IMG/VR virus record: IMGVR_UViG_3300044620_000273 | Span: 1 to 56,707 of that record | Strand: one strand, 5' to 3' | Source of the DNA: a virus | DNA length: 56,707 nucleotides | Shown here: positions 9,666 through 56,707 of the stretch, piece after piece | Layout: the number at the start of each line of letters is the position of its first letter | How positions within the stretch are numbered: the first letter of the stretch is position 1 | Position numbers and translations under genes: made by a program | Notes under the pieces: generated by a model | Databases searched by the model: none | What the model was told of the DNA's origin: nothing | What the model saw: the letters and a program-made list of their open reading frames with translations, nothing else

Positions 9666-9874
9666 ACTTCGACATCAATACCCTCGTGACCGTGCTGACC
9701 TTTATCGGGGGCCTGATAACCGTATGGGTGAACCTCAACAGCCGTCTGACGTTGCTTGAGGCGCGTCTTGGCTTTGGTGACGAGAAGTTCAACGCCATCG
9801 ACAAGAAGTTCGACGAGGTGATGATGCACCTCCGCCGGATTGAGGACAAACTGGATAATAAGGCGGATCGATGA
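9662..9874 (+). CDS. Single-membrane-span coiled-coil protein
   Basis: A 70-residue protein. Residues about 6-24 form a hydrophobic membrane segment (LVTVLTFIGGLITVWVNL), followed by a charged helix with heptad character (LTLLEARLG...FDEVMMHLRRIEDKLDNK). It overlaps both neighbours by ATGA. Inner-membrane spanin or holin-associated roles fit its layout and its position ahead of the secreted and lysis genes, but no outer-membrane spanin partner with a lipobox is recognisable. Confidence 0.65.
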   Translation: MNFDINTLVTVLTFIGGLITVWVNLNSRLTLLEARLGFGDEKFNAIDKKFDEVMMHLRRIEDKLDNKADR

Positions 9875-10872
9875 TGAAACGGTTTCTGTTTGGTTTTGTG
9901 GCCGCCACCAGCGCGGCCTCTCTCGTGTTTGCGCAGACTGCTCCCGTGTCGGTGGCTCCGACGGAGTATATCTACAACACGACGACCAACAGCACGTCGA
10001 ACAACACCAACACGTCCACCAACACGTCCACCAACACGAACAACAACAATTCCACCAGCACGTCGACGAACACGAACACGAACAACAACGTGAACACCAG
10101 CACGAGCACGTCGGTCAACACGAACAACAACGTGAACGCCAGCACATCGGTCAACACGAACAACAACAATAACGTGAGCACGTCGGTCAACACGAACAAT
10201 AACGTCTCGACGAACACGAACATCAACCAAAATACTGGCACGATGACGAACATCAACCAGAACACCAACGTCAATTCTGGCACGATGACGAACATCAACC
10301 AGAACACCAGCACGTCGGATAACGTCAACCGGAACATCAATACCGACACGAGCAACAGCACGATCAACCAGAGCGTGAATAGCAGGTCCGATAACACCAA
10401 CCGGAACATCAACAACGACACGTCGAACTCGACAATCAACAGCACGACGAACAACGTCAACCAGAACAACAACGTCAACGTCTCCGACAGCAAAAGCTAT
10501 AGCGAGAACGTCTCTCGGCAGGTTATCGATCAGAACATCAAGTCACCGCCTCCGAGCGCCATCGCGCCGAGCATGATGTCCTACAGCCAAGACCTCTGCA
10601 CCACCGGCCAGTCTGGCGCTGTGCAGACGCAAATCATCGGCCTGTCCGCTGGGCGCACTGTGCGTGATCAAAACTGTGAGCGGATGAAGCTCTCGAAGAC
10701 CCTGTACGACATGGGTATGCGCGTGGCTGCTGTGAGCCTCCTGTGCCAAGACACCCGTGTCTTCAGGGCGATGGAGATGGCTGGTACGCCCTGCCCGTTC
10801 ATGGGCGCAATCGGTGAGGCTGCGACAGCGGCATGGGAAGAAAATGCCGACCGCCGCCCCGACGCAGACTAA
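9871..10872 (+). CDS. Secreted Asn/Thr/Ser-rich repeat protein with conserved Cys domain
   Basis: A 333-residue protein; ATG 9871 (or the adjacent 9874) overlaps the preceding stop. Residues 1-22 are a signal peptide (MMKRFLFGFVAATSAASLVFAQ, cut after FAQ). Residues about 35-215 are almost wholly N, T, S, V and I, built from NTNNN, TSTSVN, MTNINQNT and NVNRNINxDTSNSTIN units. Residues about 235-320 form a conserved globular part with four Cys (SQDLCTTG, DQNCERMKLS, LLCQDTRVFRAM, GTPCPF), a domain I have seen in other phage proteins of unknown role. The repeats could form a beta-solenoid or fibril. Export by a lytic phage is unusual. Confidence 0.8.
   Translation: MMKRFLFGFVAATSAASLVFAQTAPVSVAPTEYIYNTTTNSTSNNTNTSTNTSTNTNNNNSTSTSTNTNTNNNVNTSTSTSVNTNNNVNASTSVNTNNNNNVSTSVNTNNNVSTNTNINQNTGTMTNINQNTNVNSGTMTNINQNTSTSDNVNRNINTDTSNSTINQSVNSRSDNTNRNINNDTSNSTINSTTNNVNQNNNVNVSDSKSYSENVSRQVIDQNIKSPPPSAIAPSMMSYSQDLCTTGQSGAVQTQIIGLSAGRTVRDQNCERMKLSKTLYDMGMRVAAVSLLCQDTRVFRAMEMAGTPCPFMGAIGEAATAAWEENADRRPDAD
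9970..10500 (+). repeat. Degenerate AACACGAAC-type repeat tract
   Basis: This stretch is made of variants of AACACGAACAACAAC, AGCACGTCGGTCAACACG and ATGACGAACATCAACCAG. It encodes the Asn/Thr/Ser region of the secreted protein. The tract is prone to copy-number change and to assembly compression. Confidence 0.85.
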
Positions 10873-24956: not shown

Positions 24957-27758
24957 ATGGCTCAAAAGAAAGATTGGTGGGAAAGCTACGAGGAGGCAGG
25001 AGGTCAAGGCTCCCCCTCGCGCAGCATCGTTGTGCAGCCCGGTTCCCCCGTGAAAGAAAGGGAAATCGAAGCGGGGATTGGGCAGAAGCAAGCGGGGGCC
25101 GCATCCTCGGCAGCTTCTGCCGAACAGACGCGGACGCTGCTTCCTGCCAAGGCGAGCAAAGCTCAGTCTGACGCCGAGCTGGCGCAGATTAAGACTGAAG
25201 CCGCTCGCATGGCGTTGGAAAAGGCAAAGGCGCTCATGCGCAACCGTCCGGTCGGCGACGCGCTGACCGAGGCGCAGAACCTTGTTCTGACAGAAATCAG
25301 GAACGCTGTTAAGGCACGCAAGCTTAGCCGTGACATGTTCGGCGCAAGCGGCCTCGGGCAGGGTATCACGTCAGCGTCTATATTCTCCGGCTCTCCGGCA
25401 AACAGCGTCCTTGCGCTTCTCAAACCCATTCAGGCGAACACGGCCTTTACCAAACTGCAAGACATGCGCGCCAAAAGTCCAACGGGCGCGGCACTGGGTG
25501 CCGTGTCGGATCGTGAACTTCAGTTGCTCTACAGTACTGAGGACGCGATTGACCCTGCGGCGAGCGACGAAGTCTTTCAGGACGGCATGGGCACGGTCAT
25601 CAGGAACCGACTGACAGTCGCCAACCGCCTCGGCATCTCCCCCGAAGCTTTGGCCGAGGCCCTCGGGCCAGAAGAAATCCAGACCTTTGGCTCGGACATC
25701 AAGTCCTACCGCTTCGTCCCTGAAGATGTGAAGGCGCTTCAGGCGTATGTTGCGAAGACCAAGAAGGATGGCACCTTCGACCCGACGGACTTTGCCGCAC
25801 TTATGGGCAGCGCATACTACAACGCCACTGGCCGCGAACCAGACGAGAACTTTGTAAAGAATGCTCTCGACACCGGCATGAACTTGCAGACCAGTGAGGG
25901 CGCAGGTCTTTCGGACTTTAGCTATGAGCAGGCCGACAAGGACGCGCAGAAGATGCTCGGCGTTCAAGCCAATGCTGGGGGCAAGACCGAACTTGGCTGG
26001 GGCGAAGTGCTCGGCGGCGCGGCGTTGAACTTTATCCCGAGCACCTTTGAGCTTGCATACGATACGGCCAAGGCCCTGACTGTCGATCTGCCTGACACGG
26101 TTGAGAGCCTTGTGAAGGTCGTTGGCGGCGCGACTGGCCTCACAGACGACACCCAGTATGAGGCCCTGAAGAAATACTACATGGATCGTTACGGGAGCAT
26201 TGAGGGCTTCAAACAGGCCCTCATGACAGACCCAGCGTCTATCGCCGCTGACATCGCGGGCCTCGCAACAGGCGGTGCTACGATCCTTGCGAAGACTGCG
26301 GGCCTTGCGTCCAAGGTCGGGAAGATCGGCGCACTATCGAACGCGGCCAAAGCCGCTGAAGGTTTCGCCAGTGTCGCTGAAGGCTTCGCCACTGGTGCGA
26401 GTAAGCTGGACCCAACACGCTTGGCGGTTGGCACAACCAAACTTGGCGCAAAGGCCCTTGGCAATGTGGCGGAACAGCTCGCTGTGAACGCCCCTGCTCG
26501 CATGGTTGGTGCGACGGGCGCTGACGTCAAGCAGGCCTTCAGTGCTGGCAAGCGCGGATCTCAGGAGTTTGTTGAGCAAGCAACGGAAACGGGCGACGTT
26601 CTCGATCCCTTGGCTAAGGCCGACGCAGCCCTTAGCGAACTCTATCTGAACCGCAGCCGTGATTATACGCGCCGCATGAAGAAGCTAAAGCAAAATCCAG
26701 AAATCTTGTCCTTTGACGATGTCGAACAGGCTATTGAAGGCGTCCGCAATGTTGGGCGGCATAAAGGCATCGACATTTCTGGTGCTGGCGGCGTGTGGGA
26801 CGAAATCGACGCGAAGTACATGGAGTTCTTCGACAAGGGTCTGAACAGCATCGAAGACTTTGATGCGATGAAGCGCGCGATTAAGGAAATCGGCAGCCGC
26901 TACCAAGTCGGTACGCCTGAGTTCAAGGTCGCGAATGATGTCGCAAAGTCGATCAACGCCACCATCACCGCAAAAGCTCCCATATACTCCAAGGTTATGG
27001 GCGACTATCGTCTAGCGAGTGATACCCTCGCCGACGTGAAGGCATCGATTGGTGCAGGTGCAAAGAGTGCAGATACCACCCTCTCGAAGCTCATGCGTGC
27101 GCAGTCCGGTAAAGGCCCGCGTGGCAACTCGGTTATCCAATTACTTGAGAGTACGAAGAGCGGCAAGGGTCTTGGGGACATGCTGGCAGGACGCAACCTG
27201 TCGAGCACTGAACCCCGTGGCATGGCACCAAGCATGATGACGACTGGGGGTGCTGCTGCGGGTTCTCCTGAGCTTCTTCTCGCCTCCACGCTATCGCCTC
27301 GCGGCCTTGGCATGAAGGCCTATGAGCTGGGCGAAAAGTACGGCGCAGCAGAGCGCGGTATTGGCGCAGCGGGCCGCATGATTGGCGCGGATCAGTACAT
27401 CCCGAAGGCAGTCAATCTGGTGCAGGAGTATACGCCGGGCGTGAAGCGCGCCGTCTTCGGCATGCAGCCTATCATCCAGAGCCAGCAAGACCCGTTCACC
27501 CTCACGACGGTCACTCCTGAAGAGCGCAAGAACGCCCTGATGGCGCGCTACGCCGCAACGGCCATACCGCAGGCTGCCTTGGTGGAGCGCGCGCCGCTGT
27601 CGCTTGAGCAGTACCGCGTTGGCCTTCCGGGGGAGGGCAGAACGGATCTGACCGAGCTTTTGAAGATGTATACAGGCGAAGACAACGAACAGCCCGTTGA
27701 AGAAGAGCAGCCCGGATTTGCGCGCGGCGGCATCGTCATGGCACCGAGCATGTTCTAA
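24957..27758 (+). CDS. Large internal/ejection protein candidate
   Basis: A 933-residue protein, mainly helical. Hydrophobic or amphipathic stretches lie near residues 340-380 (VLGGAALNFIPSTFELAYDTAKAL) and 420-470 (ADIAGLATGGATILAKTAGLASKVGKIG), where membrane insertion could occur. The C-terminus ends GFARGGIVMAPSMF, echoing the FARGG tail of the gene at 20832. No transglycosylase motif is recognisable, unlike T7 gp16. It starts five bases after the preceding stop. A DNA-ejection conduit role is inferred from size, composition and gene order. Confidence 0.6.
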   Translation: MAQKKDWWESYEEAGGQGSPSRSIVVQPGSPVKEREIEAGIGQKQAGAASSAASAEQTRTLLPAKASKAQSDAELAQIKTEAARMALEKAKALMRNRPVGDALTEAQNLVLTEIRNAVKARKLSRDMFGASGLGQGITSASIFSGSPANSVLALLKPIQANTAFTKLQDMRAKSPTGAALGAVSDRELQLLYSTEDAIDPAASDEVFQDGMGTVIRNRLTVANRLGISPEALAEALGPEEIQTFGSDIKSYRFVPEDVKALQAYVAKTKKDGTFDPTDFAALMGSAYYNATGREPDENFVKNALDTGMNLQTSEGAGLSDFSYEQADKDAQKMLGVQANAGGKTELGWGEVLGGAALNFIPSTFELAYDTAKALTVDLPDTVESLVKVVGGATGLTDDTQYEALKKYYMDRYGSIEGFKQALMTDPASIAADIAGLATGGATILAKTAGLASKVGKIGALSNAAKAAEGFASVAEGFATGASKLDPTRLAVGTTKLGAKALGNVAEQLAVNAPARMVGATGADVKQAFSAGKRGSQEFVEQATETGDVLDPLAKADAALSELYLNRSRDYTRRMKKLKQNPEILSFDDVEQAIEGVRNVGRHKGIDISGAGGVWDEIDAKYMEFFDKGLNSIEDFDAMKRAIKEIGSRYQVGTPEFKVANDVAKSINATITAKAPIYSKVMGDYRLASDTLADVKASIGAGAKSADTTLSKLMRAQSGKGPRGNSVIQLLESTKSGKGLGDMLAGRNLSSTEPRGMAPSMMTTGGAAAGSPELLLASTLSPRGLGMKAYELGEKYGAAERGIGAAGRMIGADQYIPKAVNLVQEYTPGVKRAVFGMQPIIQSQQDPFTLTTVTPEERKNALMARYAATAIPQAALVERAPLSLEQYRVGLPGEGRTDLTELLKMYTGEDNEQPVEEEQPGFARGGIVMAPSMF

Positions 27759-38529: not shown

Positions 38530-38576
38530 TGCGTTGCTGATAAACATCATATAGTCGCTGCAATTAGGCATTGCAA
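38530..38576 (-). promoter_or_regulatory. Early promoter-operator module B (best copy)
   Basis: On the - strand: TTGCAA (38576-38571), a 17-base spacer, TATATG (38553-38548), predicted start A38541, and transcript start ATCAGCAACGCA (38541-38530). The inverted repeat TGCAAT-N5-ATTGCA (38559-38575) overlaps the -35. TTATCAGCAACGCA (38543-38530) is complementary over 14 bases to the apical loop region of the structured leader at 35.08 kb. Confidence 0.7.
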
Positions 38577-38591: not shown

Positions 38592-40643
38592 TTATTCGTA
38601 AAAAATTACAATGCCTTTTTCCATGCGCAGAGGGCCGTCCTTTTCCTTGCTAAGTTGCTGAATTGCCCTGACAATCGATTGACGGCGGATGTCACGCTTG
38701 CCCGGCTCAGGCGGTGGTAACATATCGCAAGCCTTCTGGATGAGCTCTTCTGAACGCACGACGGCGTCTTCTGCAAAGGTCGTCATGACCTCAAGCACAT
38801 GCGTCTCAAGCCGACCGCGACGCTTCACGGATTTCTTGTCCTCGGTCACGGTCGACCGCACCTCGTCCTCGACTGCGACGCAGCTTGTGATCTCGTCACC
38901 GTCCTCGTCGAAGCCCAGCAGGATCGTCTCCAACTTGAAGCCCCAGCGCAGGCCGTCCTCGCCGTCCTTCTGCTTGCTGGTGCGGATCTGGCGTGCGCCG
39001 CTGTTCTCATCGCGCGTCACTTCCAGCTCAGCGTCGACGGCGGCACGGATGCCTGACCAGCCGCGTGAGCCTCGGTGGGCGTCCTTGCCTGCGTGATGCA
39101 CAAGCTCGACCGTCGCGCCTGTCGCGGTGCGCAGGACGCGCACGTTGGCAAGGGCGAGGCCCATGTCCTCTGCGCCGTTCTCATTCGCGCCGGGCGTCAC
39201 CTGCGCAAAGGTGTCGATCACGATCAGGGACACGCCGCCGACCGCCTTGATCGATGCCGCCAACTCGGTGACGTCGCCCTCCTCCATGAGGTTGGGCGGC
39301 ACCACGATCACGCCGATGTCCAGATCCTTGGGCGAGATGCCCAGATGCTGCGCCAGCGCCTTGATGCGCTTGCCGTAGCTGCCTGCGCCTTCCGCCGCGA
39401 TGATCACGACGCGGCCCTTCTCGGCCTTGTGGCCGCGCCACGGCACGCCCAGTGCGATGCAGGCCGCCATCTCAAGCACGACAAAGCTCTTGCCTGAGCC
39501 CGACGCGCCAAAGATCGTGACGATGTCGGCGGCAGGCACGACGCCCTTGATGAGCCACTTAGCCGTCTTCTGGCTGCTCATCTCATCGGCAGACAGGACT
39601 GGGAACTTGCCGGTGTAGCCCGCAGGCGAATAGACGCCCTCTGACGCTTCCAGATCGGCGACGAGCGCATCGGCCTTGGCCGACACCTCATAGGCGCTCG
39701 CCGCCTTACTGGGGCGCGTTGCTGCGGCGTCCTTTACCATCTTGATTACGGAGGCCATGGTGACCTGCTTGCGGTTGGAGCCCTTGCGCCGCTCGAAGCT
39801 GTCCCACTGGACGCGCAGCCCTTCGGTGCCGGGGTAGGTGTAGCCTTCGCTCGACCAGTCGTCCCAGATCTCGAAGCCGTCATCGCCGCCGTCGGTCTCA
39901 TGGGCCAGAGCCATGCCGACCTTAATCCACTGCTCGCGGCCCATGTCTGGATCGAGGGCGGAGACTAGCTCCTCCATGCGCTCAATGGTCAGGCCCAGCC
40001 TCGGCTCGCGGCCTGCCATGAAGTCGTCGGGATCGATGACGTTATTCTGCACCGAACCGAAGCGGGTCTCGCATAGGTCGACCGTGTACTGGTCAACGTC
40101 GGCGACGGTGTTTTTGAGGCCGATCATCTCGCAGGCTGGCAGGATGTTGCCGGTGAAGGTCACAAAGCCTGAGCTGCTGAACGTCTCGAAGCCGAAGCGG
40201 TCGGGCGTGGCGTGGCTCTTGTGGTTGCCCAGATTGCCCCTCAGCGCGGCGCGGATGCCTTTGCCGCTGGGGCTGTACTCGGCGTAGGTGCGCACGATGA
40301 TGCGCTCGATGTCGCTGGGGATCTCACCGTTCGGCCCGACGCAGTGGTCGAAGTCGAGGAAGGTGTAGCCAAAGTCAGGCAGGGGCGCGAAGCCGACGCC
40401 GTCATAGCCCATGCGCGCGGCTGCGTCGCGAGCGGCGGCGAAGGTCGTCAGCCGTGTGCGGTCGGTCGGGGAGCCCTGCTGGCCGTGCCTGATCGTGCCG
40501 TCGGTCCAGTAGGGCACCTTACGCGGCTTGGGTTCGTTGTGGTACTTTTCAAAGCGCCAGATGAGCCACGCGGGAACTGAACGCAGTTCCTCTGGCACTT
40601 CTAACGAGAGAAGTTTGGGCGCAATTGCCCTTACGCTTGCCAT
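38592..40643 (-). CDS. Primase-polymerase fused to RecA-like helicase
   Basis: A 683-residue protein. ATG 40643 has GAGAGGA upstream. Residues about 15-170 are a prim-pol domain (VPAWLIWRFEKY, KVPYW, FLDFDHC with Asp97/Asp99, YSPSGKGIR). Residues about 215-295 are PriCT-like (LVSALDPDMGREQWIKVGMALAHE, WDDWSSEGYTY, WDSFERR). Residues about 350-560 are a RepA/RecA-type ATPase: Walker A GASGSGKS, VIIAAEGAG, LIVIDTFAQ (Walker B) and VELVHHAGKD. The C-terminus looks winged-helix. It likely primes and unwinds phage DNA with the family A polymerase, replacing separate primase and helicase genes. Confidence 0.93.
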   Translation of the reverse strand: MASVRAIAPKLLSLEVPEELRSVPAWLIWRFEKYHNEPKPRKVPYWTDGTIRHGQQGSPTDRTRLTTFAAARDAAARMGYDGVGFAPLPDFGYTFLDFDHCVGPNGEIPSDIERIIVRTYAEYSPSGKGIRAALRGNLGNHKSHATPDRFGFETFSSSGFVTFTGNILPACEMIGLKNTVADVDQYTVDLCETRFGSVQNNVIDPDDFMAGREPRLGLTIERMEELVSALDPDMGREQWIKVGMALAHETDGGDDGFEIWDDWSSEGYTYPGTEGLRVQWDSFERRKGSNRKQVTMASVIKMVKDAAATRPSKAASAYEVSAKADALVADLEASEGVYSPAGYTGKFPVLSADEMSSQKTAKWLIKGVVPAADIVTIFGASGSGKSFVVLEMAACIALGVPWRGHKAEKGRVVIIAAEGAGSYGKRIKALAQHLGISPKDLDIGVIVVPPNLMEEGDVTELAASIKAVGGVSLIVIDTFAQVTPGANENGAEDMGLALANVRVLRTATGATVELVHHAGKDAHRGSRGWSGIRAAVDAELEVTRDENSGARQIRTSKQKDGEDGLRWGFKLETILLGFDEDGDEITSCVAVEDEVRSTVTEDKKSVKRRGRLETHVLEVMTTFAEDAVVRSEELIQKACDMLPPPEPGKRDIRRQSIVRAIQQLSKEKDGPLRMEKGIVIFYE

Positions 40644-40666
40644 GTCGTCATCCTCTCCCACAGTGT

Positions 40667-40915
40667 TTACAGTAGATCTGCGCTTGCGCTCGGCGTGTTC
40701 AGGGCCCGCATGAGATCAGGGTTCATGAGGTCGGAGCGCGGGATGGCGAAGATGGCCTCGATGATGATGGCCTTCTCGACGGGTGCCCAGCCGCGACTTT
40801 TCCACGCATAGACGGCCTGATGCGTCAGGCCCATGCGCTTACAGAACTTGACGATGCCGCCGCCTCGCTCGATGGCGAGGTCGATGGCGGCAATGCGTTC
40901 TTGTTTGGTGGTCAT
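40667..40915 (-). CDS. YdaS/Cro-like transcription regulator
   Basis: An 82-residue protein. IDLAIERGGGIVKFCKRMGLTHQAVYAWKSRGWAPVEKAIIIEAI is a Cro/YdaS-type helix-turn-helix, with the recognition helix around THQAVYAWKSRG. It is a leading candidate to bind the four TGCAAY-N5-RTTGCA operators. It lies in the transcript served by promoter C, so negative feedback would be possible. Overlaps the previous gene by ATGA. Confidence 0.88.
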   Translation of the reverse strand: MTTKQERIAAIDLAIERGGGIVKFCKRMGLTHQAVYAWKSRGWAPVEKAIIIEAIFAIPRSDLMNPDLMRALNTPSASADLL

Positions 40916-41652: not shown

Positions 41653-41696
41653 GTTGCTGATGAGCCATCCCTAATCGATGCAATCAGACATTGCAA
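41653..41696 (-). promoter_or_regulatory. Early promoter-operator module C
   Basis: On the - strand: TTGCAA (41696-41691), a 17-base spacer, TAGGGA (41673-41668), predicted start A41661, transcript start ATCAGCAACACGG. The inverted repeat TGCAAT-N5-ATTGCA is at 41679-41695. The -10 is poor, suggesting a need for activation or a phage factor. Confidence 0.6.
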
Positions 41697-45502: not shown

Positions 45503-45519
45503 GATTTTTACTCCGTGTT

Positions 45520-45566
45520 TGCGTTGCTGATGAGCTATCCCTAATCGATGCAATCAGGCATTGCAA
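45520..45566 (-). promoter_or_regulatory. Early promoter-operator module D
   Basis: On the - strand: TTGCAA (45566-45561), a 17-base spacer, TAGGGA (45543-45538), predicted start A45531, transcript start ATCAGCAACGCA (45531-45520), with the inverted repeat TGCAAT-N5-ATTGCA at 45549-45565. It drives the outermost leftward operon from the divergent control region. Confidence 0.6.
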
Positions 45567-45842
45567 TACACAAAATGCATCTTTTTAAAAATAATTGCAG
45601 CATGCATCATTTGCAGCATTAAGCAGCATGCTGCAAATGGTGCAGCTCGGAGAAATGCAGCATTTATGCAGCATCGGGGGGAGCCTTCTAAAAGAAGGCC
45701 CCCAACTGCTGCAAATGCTGCACCGAGCAGATGCTGTGCTGCGCTGCACTTTTGTTGACCACCCTCGGAACTCAATCGTGCATCATGTTGCGCTGTGATG
45801 CATGCTGTGTTACTCGGATCAAAATCACTAGGGGTTTAGGAA
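45567..45842. other. Divergent control region, candidate replication origin
   Basis: 276 bases without a gene, between leftward early and rightward late genes. An AT-rich stretch (about 45568-45596) is followed by GCAGCAT at 45597, 45613, 45623, 45657 and 45668 and its reverse ATGCTGC at 45628 and 45715, with partial copies at 45731 and 45802. Iteron-like repeats next to AT-rich DNA are a usual origin layout. Possible rightward promoter elements (TTGACC at 45755; TTGCGC at 45788 with TACTCG 17 bases on) are weak. Confidence 0.5.
45645..45728. repeat. 84-base imperfect inverted repeat (cruciform-forming)
   Basis: Nested arms: GCTCGG/CCGAGC (45645-45650 with 45723-45728), TGCAGCATTT/AAATGCTGCA (45656-45665 with 45713-45722), GCAGCA/TGCTGC (45668-45673 with 45707-45712), GGGG/CCCC (45678-45681 with 45700-45703) and GCCTTC/GAAGGC (45683-45688 with 45694-45699) around a TAAAA loop. 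That is 32 pairs with small bulges. The core could terminate transcription in either direction; the whole could be an origin hairpin. Confidence 0.7.
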
Positions 45843-46136
45843 ATGAAAAGATACCTCGGGCATAAACCGAAAACGGATGACTGGAATTTTCTCGGGTCGG
45901 TAGAGGCAGACGGAAATTGGTTCGTGTACGTCAGGCCTGATCCGTCGAACGGATGGTCGTCGGTTAAGGTCGTGGCAGATGGCAGGGCCTTGGGCAAAGC
46001 GAACTATTGGCTGGGCTGGAACGGTCAACGCTTTAGCCGCCATGCGGATCTGCCGCTGCTGCTCAATCGCAGTGGGTTGGCTAGAGCCGTAGAGGATATG
46101 CTCAAGGCCCGTGAGGATGGGTTTGATTTGCTTTGA
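45843..46136 (+). CDS. First rightward gene, unknown function
   Basis: A 97-residue protein (MKRYLGHKPKTDDWNFLGSV, NWFVYVRPDPSNGWSSVKVVADGRALGKANYWLGWNGQRF, LLNRSGLARAVEDML). Trp-rich, beta in the first part and helical at the end. Alone between the control region and the terminase genes, so it may be an early or delayed-early product. No family recognised. GGGG...AGGA lies just before ATG 45843. Confidence 0.65.
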   Translation: MKRYLGHKPKTDDWNFLGSVEADGNWFVYVRPDPSNGWSSVKVVADGRALGKANYWLGWNGQRFSRHADLPLLLNRSGLARAVEDMLKAREDGFDLL

Positions 46137-46268: not shown

Positions 46269-46766
46269 ATGCAGACAATGGGTCAGACGAAACGAACTTC
46301 TGCCGTCGAGCAGCGTATCATCGAGGGGCTGTGCGATGGCGTCCCGCTGCGTGAGTTGTGCCGTCAGGATGGGATGCCGAGCTGGCGGACTGTGTATGAT
46401 TGGATCTCCGCCGACGAGGAGTTCGCCGCACGCATCGCGCACGCGCGCGAGTTGGGCTTCGACGCCATCGCCGAGGACATCCTCGACATCGCCGACGACG
46501 GCACCAACGACTGGATCGAGCGCCAACGCAACGACGGCACGACCGAACTGGCGATTAACAGCGAGCATGTGCAGCGCAGCAAGTTGCGCATCGACACGCG
46601 CCTCAAGCTTCTGGCGAAGTGGTCCCCCAACAGGTACGGCGACAACGCAACACTGAACCTTGGCAACAAGAACGGTGAGGCGCTCAAGATTGAGACCCAG
46701 CCCGCCGACCCCATGGTGCTGTCCGCAGTGACCCAAGCCCTGCTCTCGCATAAGGTAGACACATGA
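46269..46766 (+). CDS. Terminase small subunit (Sf6 gp1-like)
   Basis: A 165-residue DNA-recognition subunit of the packaging motor. The N-terminal HTH (EQRIIEGLCDGVPLRELCRQDGMPSWRTVYDWISADEEF) and the helical core ARIAHARELGFDAIAEDILDIADDG...VQRSKLRIDTRLKLLAKWSPNRYGD match the widespread phage small-terminase family. ATG 46269 and 46278 are both possible; GGAG is nearest the second. Overlaps the next small gene by ATGA. Confidence 0.92.
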   Translation: MQTMGQTKRTSAVEQRIIEGLCDGVPLRELCRQDGMPSWRTVYDWISADEEFAARIAHARELGFDAIAEDILDIADDGTNDWIERQRNDGTTELAINSEHVQRSKLRIDTRLKLLAKWSPNRYGDNATLNLGNKNGEALKIETQPADPMVLSAVTQALLSHKVDT

Positions 46767-56538: not shown

Positions 56539-56707
56539 ATGAGCAGCTTCGCCGTAAAACCCGTCTGGGACAAGAAACGTCCGAAGGATCTCGGCAAGCC
56601 GAAAGACTTGTCAGTTAAGCGCAAGGCCGCCGCAAAACGTCGCGCCAAAGCCGCTGGACGACCCTATCCAAATTTAATCGACAATATGGCTGCGGCCCGC
56701 AAGAAAG
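56539..56707 (+). CDS. Small basic protein, N-terminal part (gene crosses the contig junction)
   Basis: ATG 56539 follows the DUF6321 gene stop by one base. The reading frame (MSSFAVKPVWDKKRPKDLGK ...) runs off the window and continues at position 1 to TGA 133-135, because 56581-56707 repeats 1-127. See the entry at 1-135. The Lys-rich sequence and tight spacing fit the basic head-region proteins around it. Confidence 0.75.
   Translation, partial: MSSFAVKPVWDKKRPKDLGKPKDLSVKRKAAAKRRAKAAGRPYPNLIDNMAAARKK
56581..56707. repeat. Terminal direct repeat, right copy (identical to 1-127)
   Basis: Identical to 1-127; removing it gives a 56,580-bp circle. Confidence 0.95.

What the first reader, a model, noticed from the sequence alone, without database searches (positions are those of the whole stretch)
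45567..45842. Iteron-rich divergent region with AT-rich block and giant cruciform: candidate origin
Five GCAGCAT and two reverse copies lie within about 130 bases beside an AT-rich stretch, and an 84-base nested inverted repeat contains several of them. The region separates the leftward early and rightward late genes. Iterons plus AT-rich DNA is a known origin plan. The hairpin could instead be a strong bidirectional terminator that isolates the two transcription programmes.
Basis: partly seen in the sequence, partly recalled or inferred. Interest (0 to 1): 0.65.

Follow-up and report, generated by a model that had tools for sequence, protein, structure and literature searches.

The report
Probable phage replication origin, iteron-armed hairpins
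Between the early and late genes of an uncultivated phage lies a strongly conserved non-coding DNA element, made of repeated 8-letter words folded into nested hairpins beside the most AT-rich spot of the genome, which is most likely where the phage's own primase-helicase starts DNA copying.

Summary
Five forward and two reverse GCAGCAT lie at 45597-45721, and six of the genome's seven TGCAGCAT words fall in this one gap. The 84-nt nested inverted repeat is 45645-45728 (RNA fold -55.8 kcal/mol, z -7). The most AT-rich 40 bases of the genome adjoin it.

Fifty-six public viral contigs carry the element, always at the same early/late divergence. The neighbouring terS gene is swapped (97%, 45%, 36% identity, or undetected) without changing it. 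More distant relatives have the same hairpin built from a different word (TGCACCAT, TGCAACRC, TGCAACAA, TGCAGCAC). All repeats change in concert and the apical GC hairpin is replaced by unrelated palindromes.

The phage primase-helicase ends in a predicted winged helix. In TGCACC-type relatives the same domain is encoded by the first gene beside the element. Bordetella phage BPP-1 has an iteron-armed hairpin between primase and terS, a stem-loop published as a putative origin on the model of plasmid pRN1.

Best reading: a replication origin of the iteron plus stem-loop kind, untested. GC skew gives no support. A packaging site is weakened, not excluded. A T-tailed terminator is not supported. 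An early/late regulatory switch remains possible.

The parts
45503..45842 (.). whole non-coding early/late divergence: the proposed origin region with flanking promoter sequences
   Evidence: gene context; same position in 56 other contigs
45560..45599 (.). most AT-rich 40-mer of the genome (31/40); candidate unwinding element, or UP element of the leftward promoter
45596..45721 (.). cluster of TGCAGCAT iterons (starts 45596, 45612, 45656, 45667 on +; 45628, 45715 on -)
45603..45644 (.). hairpin 1, arms 45603-45619 and 45628-45644, each ending in a TGCAGCA/TGCTGCA copy
   Evidence: conserved in 36 distinct elements
45645..45728 (.). hairpin 2, the 84-nt nested inverted repeat: GCTCGG / two tandem iterons / GC-rich apical palindrome / two inverted iterons / CCGAGC
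45674..45704 (.). apical palindrome of hairpin 2; replaced by at least three unrelated palindromes in relatives, so structure rather than sequence is kept
45779..45802 (.). hairpin 3, TGCATCA...TGATGCA (TGCAGCA...TGCTGCA in relatives)
45549..45565 (.). operator-like dyad TGCAATN5ATTGCA overlapping the -35 of the leftward early promoter; 3 copies in the genome, all at early promoters
45538..45566 (-). leftward early promoter (TTGCAA at 45561-45566, about 17 nt, then an uncertain -10)
   Evidence: inferred
45843..46136 (+). first rightward gene (97 aa); homologues in TGCACC-type relatives such as L019 and L024 are fused to the primase's winged-helix domain
38592..40661 (-). primase-helicase (primase domain, PriCT_2, RepA-like AAA_25) with C-terminal winged helix (residues about 614-689): proposed origin binder
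40667..40915 (-). 82-aa Cro/YdaS-like HTH protein directly upstream of the primase: alternative or accessory binder

Best explanation
The element is the phage's replication origin. Iterons (TGCAGCAT here) are bound by a phage DNA-binding domain, most likely the C-terminal winged helix of the primase-helicase, possibly helped by the Cro-like protein encoded just upstream of it. Binding to the inverted iterons, together with the neighbouring AT-rich block, opens the DNA. The nested hairpins extrude or form on single strands and serve as the platform where the primase-helicase assembles and primes. Shown here: anatomy, conservation, concerted iteron change, paired arms, sharing of the winged-helix domain with a gene beside the element. 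Inferred: protein binding, melting, priming.
For: Six of 7 genomic TGCAGCAT lie here, beside the genome's AT maximum. The element keeps its place in 56 contigs, with the iteron arms nearly invariant while the apex is swapped between unrelated palindromes. In divergent relatives the whole array changes to another word and the hairpin is kept. Arm pairs: 97.6% of cells paired, 11 both-sided changes against 3.8 in shuffles, slid controls below 48%. The replication protein has primase, PriCT_2, RepA-like AAA and a predicted winged helix. The same winged helix is encoded by the first gene after the element in TGCACC-type loci, twice in tandem in L033. In a separate lineage (L070) a TGCAAC-armed hairpin starts within about 30 bp of the primase stop codon. 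In BPP-1 an iteron-armed hairpin lies between primase and terS; PMC4234260 proposes that stem-loop as an origin by analogy with pRN1, whose stem-loop is required for replication.
Against: No GC-skew support. No E. coli-type DnaA box within 1 mismatch. The element lies about 5 kb from the primase gene in the window. L050 (TGCAAC) and L054 (TGCACC) have nearly identical primase winged helices and Cro-like proteins, so neither alone sets the iteron's fifth base. Element distance correlates with primase distance (rho 0.52) no better than with terL (0.58; in the common subset 0.55 against 0.70), though terS is the weakest (0.34). Caulobacter phage RW, the nearest isolate, has no comparable iteron array in the homologous gap. 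The winged-helix fold match has weak E-values (best 0.04).
Confidence: 0.6

Rival explanations
1. Early/late transcription switch: an array of operators for a phage regulator between divergent promoters, repressing the leftward early promoter and activating rightward late transcription, as p4 does in phage phi29.
For: The array lies exactly between early and late units and close to the early promoter. Candidate regulators exist: the Cro-like protein, whose divergence correlates best with the element together with L340 (rho 0.87), and a stand-alone winged-helix protein in relatives.
Against: A switch does not need a long nested hairpin whose apex keeps pairing while losing its sequence. The early promoters already share a different dyad operator, TGCAATN5ATTGCA, and TGCAGCAT clusters at only one of the three. 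In L070 and BPP-1 the hairpin sits beside the primase gene.
Confidence: 0.2
2. Packaging (pac/cos) or terminal-repeat processing site recognised by the terminase just downstream.
For: The element lies upstream of the terminase genes in all contigs that reach that far. In Caulobacter phage RW and its near-twin GB2A the 2.94-kb terminal repeat ends at about 2940, inside the homologous divergence and next to a GC-rich hairpin.
Against: terS is replaced (100, 97, 45, 36%, or undetected) while the element stays nearly identical; L009 keeps 98.7% of the gap with a 45% terS. Conversely, terS of 54-67% identity occurs with quite different iterons. terS distance is the weakest correlate of element distance.
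Confidence: 0.12
3. Bidirectional transcription terminator or insulator between the two transcription programmes.
For: Strong GC-rich apical stem that keeps pairing with varying sequence.
Against: No T tract on either strand in any of the 36 distinct elements, no terminator-like site called there, and a terminator does not explain invariant iterons that change in concert.
Confidence: 0.05

Closest known systems
pRN1-family stem-loop origin (Sulfolobus plasmids; PMC4234260)
   Same: About 100-nt stem-loop required for replication, kept in structure while its sequence diverges; replication protein with AEP primase, helicase and C-terminal winged helix; small DNA-binding repressor gene in the same operon, just upstream of it.
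   Different: pRN1 has no iterons and an SF3 helicase, and its stem-loop lies just 3' of the replication gene; here the helicase is RepA-like (AAA_25) and the arms are built from iterons.
Bordetella phage BPP-1/BIP-1 stem-loop between primase and terS
   Same: Nested hairpin whose arms are two tandem 9-bp repeats (TTTGCCTCG), with an inner palindrome, upstream of a related terS and beside a PriCT_2 primase.
   Different: Different iteron; primase gene directly adjacent. The paper that proposed it as an origin looked for iterons and reported none there; the repeat arms are noted here.
RSF1010/IncQ oriV (RepA, RepB', RepC)
   Same: Iterons plus AT-rich DNA plus hairpins (ssiA/ssiB) used by a primase; the helicase domain here matches RSF1010 RepA (1g8y, E 1.4e-4).
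   Different: Three separate proteins and regular 20-bp direct iterons in RSF1010; no RepC homologue was identified here.
SaPI rep/ori (Staphylococcus islands; ori details from general knowledge)
   Same: Primase domain matches 7ola (E 4e-15), which I recall as the SaPI5 primase-helicase; SaPI-specific iterons in opposed groups around AT-rich DNA.
   Different: No 84-nt nested hairpin is known to me at SaPI ori; ori lies next to rep.
PLE RepA iterons and ICP1 Odn (PMC8263062)
   Same: Origin iterons whose sequence varies between relatives, and a second protein that shares the initiator's DNA-binding domain.
   Different: RepA_N initiator without primase or helicase; Odn is a nuclease of the helper phage, whereas the stand-alone winged-helix protein here is the phage's own and has no recognised nuclease domain.
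phage phi29 p4 switch (general knowledge)
   Same: Inverted-repeat protein sites between divergent early and late promoters.
   Different: No nested hairpin and no concerted iteron families.

Membership tests
iteron-type replication origin | cluster of short repeats concentrated at one locus | tested here: met
   6 of 7 genomic TGCAGCAT in the gap; corresponding clusters in relatives
iteron-type replication origin | regular, helically phased direct repeats | tested here: not met
   repeats are mostly inverted pairs with 9-, 11- and 16-bp steps
iteron-type replication origin | adjacent AT-rich unwinding region | tested here: met
   genome-wide AT maximum at 45560
iteron-type replication origin | DnaA boxes | tested here: not met
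   best E. coli-type matches have 2 mismatches; not needed by all such origins
iteron-type replication origin | cognate initiator binds the iterons | not testable with these tools
   candidate domains named; no binding data
iteron-type replication origin | supports autonomous replication / early read-depth peak | not testable with these tools
   no reads or culture
pRN1/BPP-1 stem-loop origin | long stem-loop conserved in structure but not in sequence | tested here: met
pRN1/BPP-1 stem-loop origin | replication protein with AEP-type primase, helicase and C-terminal winged helix | tested here: met
   the winged helix is a model (pLDDT 78) with weak fold-search E-values
pRN1/BPP-1 stem-loop origin | SF3 helicase | tested here: not met
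   AAA_25 / RSF1010 RepA-like
pRN1/BPP-1 stem-loop origin | stem-loop directly 3' of the replication gene | tested here: not met
   about 5 kb away in the window; adjacent in L070. Not filed as a member for this and the helicase reason; works-like claim kept
terminase pac/cos site | co-varies with the cognate TerS | tested here: not met
   terS swaps without element change; lowest correlation of the genes tested
terminase pac/cos site | maps to virion DNA ends | tested here: inconclusive
   RW/GB2A terminal repeat ends in the homologous gap; no data for this phage
intrinsic terminator | GC stem followed by a T tract | tested here: not met
early/late operator array (phi29 p4-like) | regulator sites flanking divergent early and late promoters | tested here: inconclusive
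   position fits; the regulator and the late promoter are not identified

The most novel reading that the evidence does not exclude
A hybrid class of origin in which the iterons form the arms of a nested hairpin. All iterons of an array switch sequence in concert while the apex is kept only as a palindrome. It is recognised by the primase-helicase's own winged helix, and in some phages by a duplicated stand-alone copy of that domain encoded beside the origin, which would regulate or compete with initiation.
Probability: 0.35. Interest if true: 0.72.

Novelty: new variant of a known kind. Interest (0 to 1): 0.58.

Why it matters
Origins are experimentally unknown for most tailed phages. This one can be recognised by sequence in dozens of uncultivated genomes, varies by concerted switching of one short word, and comes with a short list of candidate binding proteins, so initiator-origin specificity and its evolution become directly testable. 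If the hairpin is where the primase-helicase assembles, it would extend the stem-loop origin proposed for archaeal pRN plasmids and Bordetella phages to a wide group of uncultivated phages.

Tried and rejected
Rfam: no family in the window. tRNA: none. GC skew: not significant. Terminator reading rejected for lack of a T tract. TerS pac site weakened by terS swaps. Mantel tests were meant to separate primase from terminase linkage: they rank terS lowest but do not favour primase over terL. The recognition helices of the primase winged helix and of the Cro-like protein were compared with iteron type: both fit G against A/C at the fifth base, neither separates A from C. Curvibacter phage PCA1, a primase hit, was set aside as having a different gene layout. 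Relatives cannot be drawn for a virus record. A folding scan of the 1.8 kb upstream of terS in 18 more distant phages gave TGCA-armed hairpins in L070, L071 and perhaps L082; most of the others gave ordinary structure, often inside GC-rich genes.

Full report
Observation. All counted features are there. GCAGCAT occurs five times forward and twice reverse in 45597-45721, and the longer word TGCAGCAT occurs six times here and once elsewhere in the genome. The 84-nt nested repeat is 45645-45728: GCTCGG, a 5-nt bulge, two tandem iterons, a GC-rich apical hairpin, two inverted iterons, CCGAGC. It folds far better than shuffles. Two smaller hairpins flank it, 45603-45644 and 45779-45802. The most AT-rich 40 bases of the whole genome lie immediately to the left.

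Context. The record is a 56,707-bp virus contig with a 127-bp exact end repeat, read as a circle of 56,580 bp; the repeat length looks like an assembly overlap rather than a biological terminus (inference). Leftward genes include primase-helicase, exonuclease, DNA polymerase and helicase; rightward are terS, terL and portal. The nearest isolates are Caulobacter phages RW, RLK, KcrB and GB2A (primase 50%, terL 58%).

Conservation. The 20-mer TGCTGCAAATGCTGCACCGA is found in 56 public viral contigs, all of which also match the other arm. The element sits at the same divergence in every contig where gene context can be read. In 36 distinct aligned copies the iteron arms and the stretch AGATGCTG that follows are nearly invariant, whereas the apical stem occurs as at least three unrelated palindromes (GCCTTCT-AAA-AGAAGGC; TACCCCT-TTA-GGGGTA; CACCCCC-GTA-GGGGGTG) distributed without regard to close relationship. 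The 56 contigs were selected by one arm, so invariance of that arm is by construction; the other arm and the flanks were not selected.

Natural experiment on terS. terS is replaced again and again beside an unchanged element: L009 keeps 98.7% of the gap and a 98% terL but has a 45% terS; other contigs have 36% or no detectable terS. Element distance correlates least with terS distance (rho 0.34) and most with the Cro-like protein and L340 (0.87); primase (0.52) is not better than terL (0.58). These are correlations on related sequences and do not identify a binder.

Concerted change. In more distant relatives the corresponding gap carries the same nested hairpin built of another word: TGCACCAT (L019, L024, and with variants L033, L054), TGCAACAC/TGCAACGC (L016, L050, L055), TGCAACAA (L013), TGCAGCAC (L045). 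In an unsupervised search the most clustered 7-mer falls in this gap in most, not all, of the loci examined (L014, L028 and L062 are exceptions; others are weak or tie with coding repeats). On ten hairpins aligned by their arms, 97.6% of cells pair, with 11 both-sided changes against 3.8 in shuffles, and slid registers pair below 48%. Because inverted copies of one word pair automatically, this alone does not prove that pairing is selected; the apex, which is palindromic without shared words, is the better evidence for structure.

Who binds. The primase-helicase matches solved primases at its N-terminus (7ola, which I recall as SaPI5; 6a9w and others, which I recall as NrS-1) and RSF1010 RepA in its AAA domain, with PriCT_2 between. 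Its last 75 or so residues are modelled as a winged helix (pLDDT 78; H-H-H-E-E); fold search returns winged-helix and linker-histone folds with weak E-values. The same domain appears in the first rightward gene beside the element in TGCACC-type relatives, fused to a homologue of the window's 97-aa protein in L019 and L024, and as two tandem copies in L033 and L017; it was not found there in TGCAGC-type contigs, and L030 (TGCAAC-type) is an exception that also has it. An 82-aa Cro/YdaS-like protein is encoded directly upstream of the primase, also in RW. L050 and L054 share nearly identical versions of both proteins but differ in iteron base 5, so binding specificity remains open.

Parallels. 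In Bordetella phage BPP-1 a hairpin with tandem TTTGCCTCG arms and an inner palindrome lies between primase (bbp29) and terS (bbp26). PMC4234260 proposed the BIP-1 stem-loop 3' of the replication gene as an origin by analogy with pRN1, where a 100-nt stem-loop is required for replication and its structure is conserved without sequence; that the hairpin folded here is the same one is inferred from its position. In L070, another lineage, a TGCAAC-armed hairpin follows within about 30 bp of the primase gene. I therefore read the window's element as an origin that works like the pRN1/BPP-1 stem-loop with iterons as arms, and do not file it as a member because the helicase type and gene adjacency differ.

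Limits. No reads, no binding and no replication assay were available. GC skew is uninformative. The RW terminal repeat ends in the homologous gap, so packaging remains a live minority reading, and a regulatory switch is not excluded.

Noticed in passing
38559-38575, 41679-41695, 45549-45565: A perfect dyad TGCAATN5ATTGCA occurs three times in the genome (0.13 expected with 1 mismatch allowed), each overlapping the TTGCAA -35 of a leftward early promoter: a likely early-regulon operator.
   Followed up: partly
L033 4841-5389; L017 34-582; L014, L019, L024, L051: Stand-alone proteins carrying the primase-helicase's C-terminal winged-helix domain, two tandem copies in L033/L017, encoded as the first gene beside the hairpin element.
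   Followed up: partly
46269-46766 and relatives: terS is exchanged frequently between otherwise near-identical phages (for example L009: terL 98%, terS 45%).
   Followed up: partly
45843-46136: The 97-aa first late gene is optional: absent in L008, L010 and L011, where the gap runs straight to terS.
   Followed up: no
   Followed up: no
9961-10430: Long run of degenerate 6-bp-based tandem repeats in a late gene (333-aa ORF 9871-10872), apparently coding an Asn/Thr/Ser-rich stretch.
   Followed up: no
L048 3657-3960: In this relative the clustered word at the divergence is TGTCACAC rather than a TGCA-type word, again with a strong hairpin.
   Followed up: no
L310 1596-1715 (BPP-1 26595-26714): The hairpin beside the BPP-1 primase, by position the stem-loop published as a putative origin, has arms made of two tandem TTTGCCTCG repeats, apparently not remarked on in that paper.
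   Followed up: partly
1-127 and 56581-56707: End repeat of exactly 127 bp, a common assembler k-mer size, so the contig ends are probably not physical termini.
   Followed up: no
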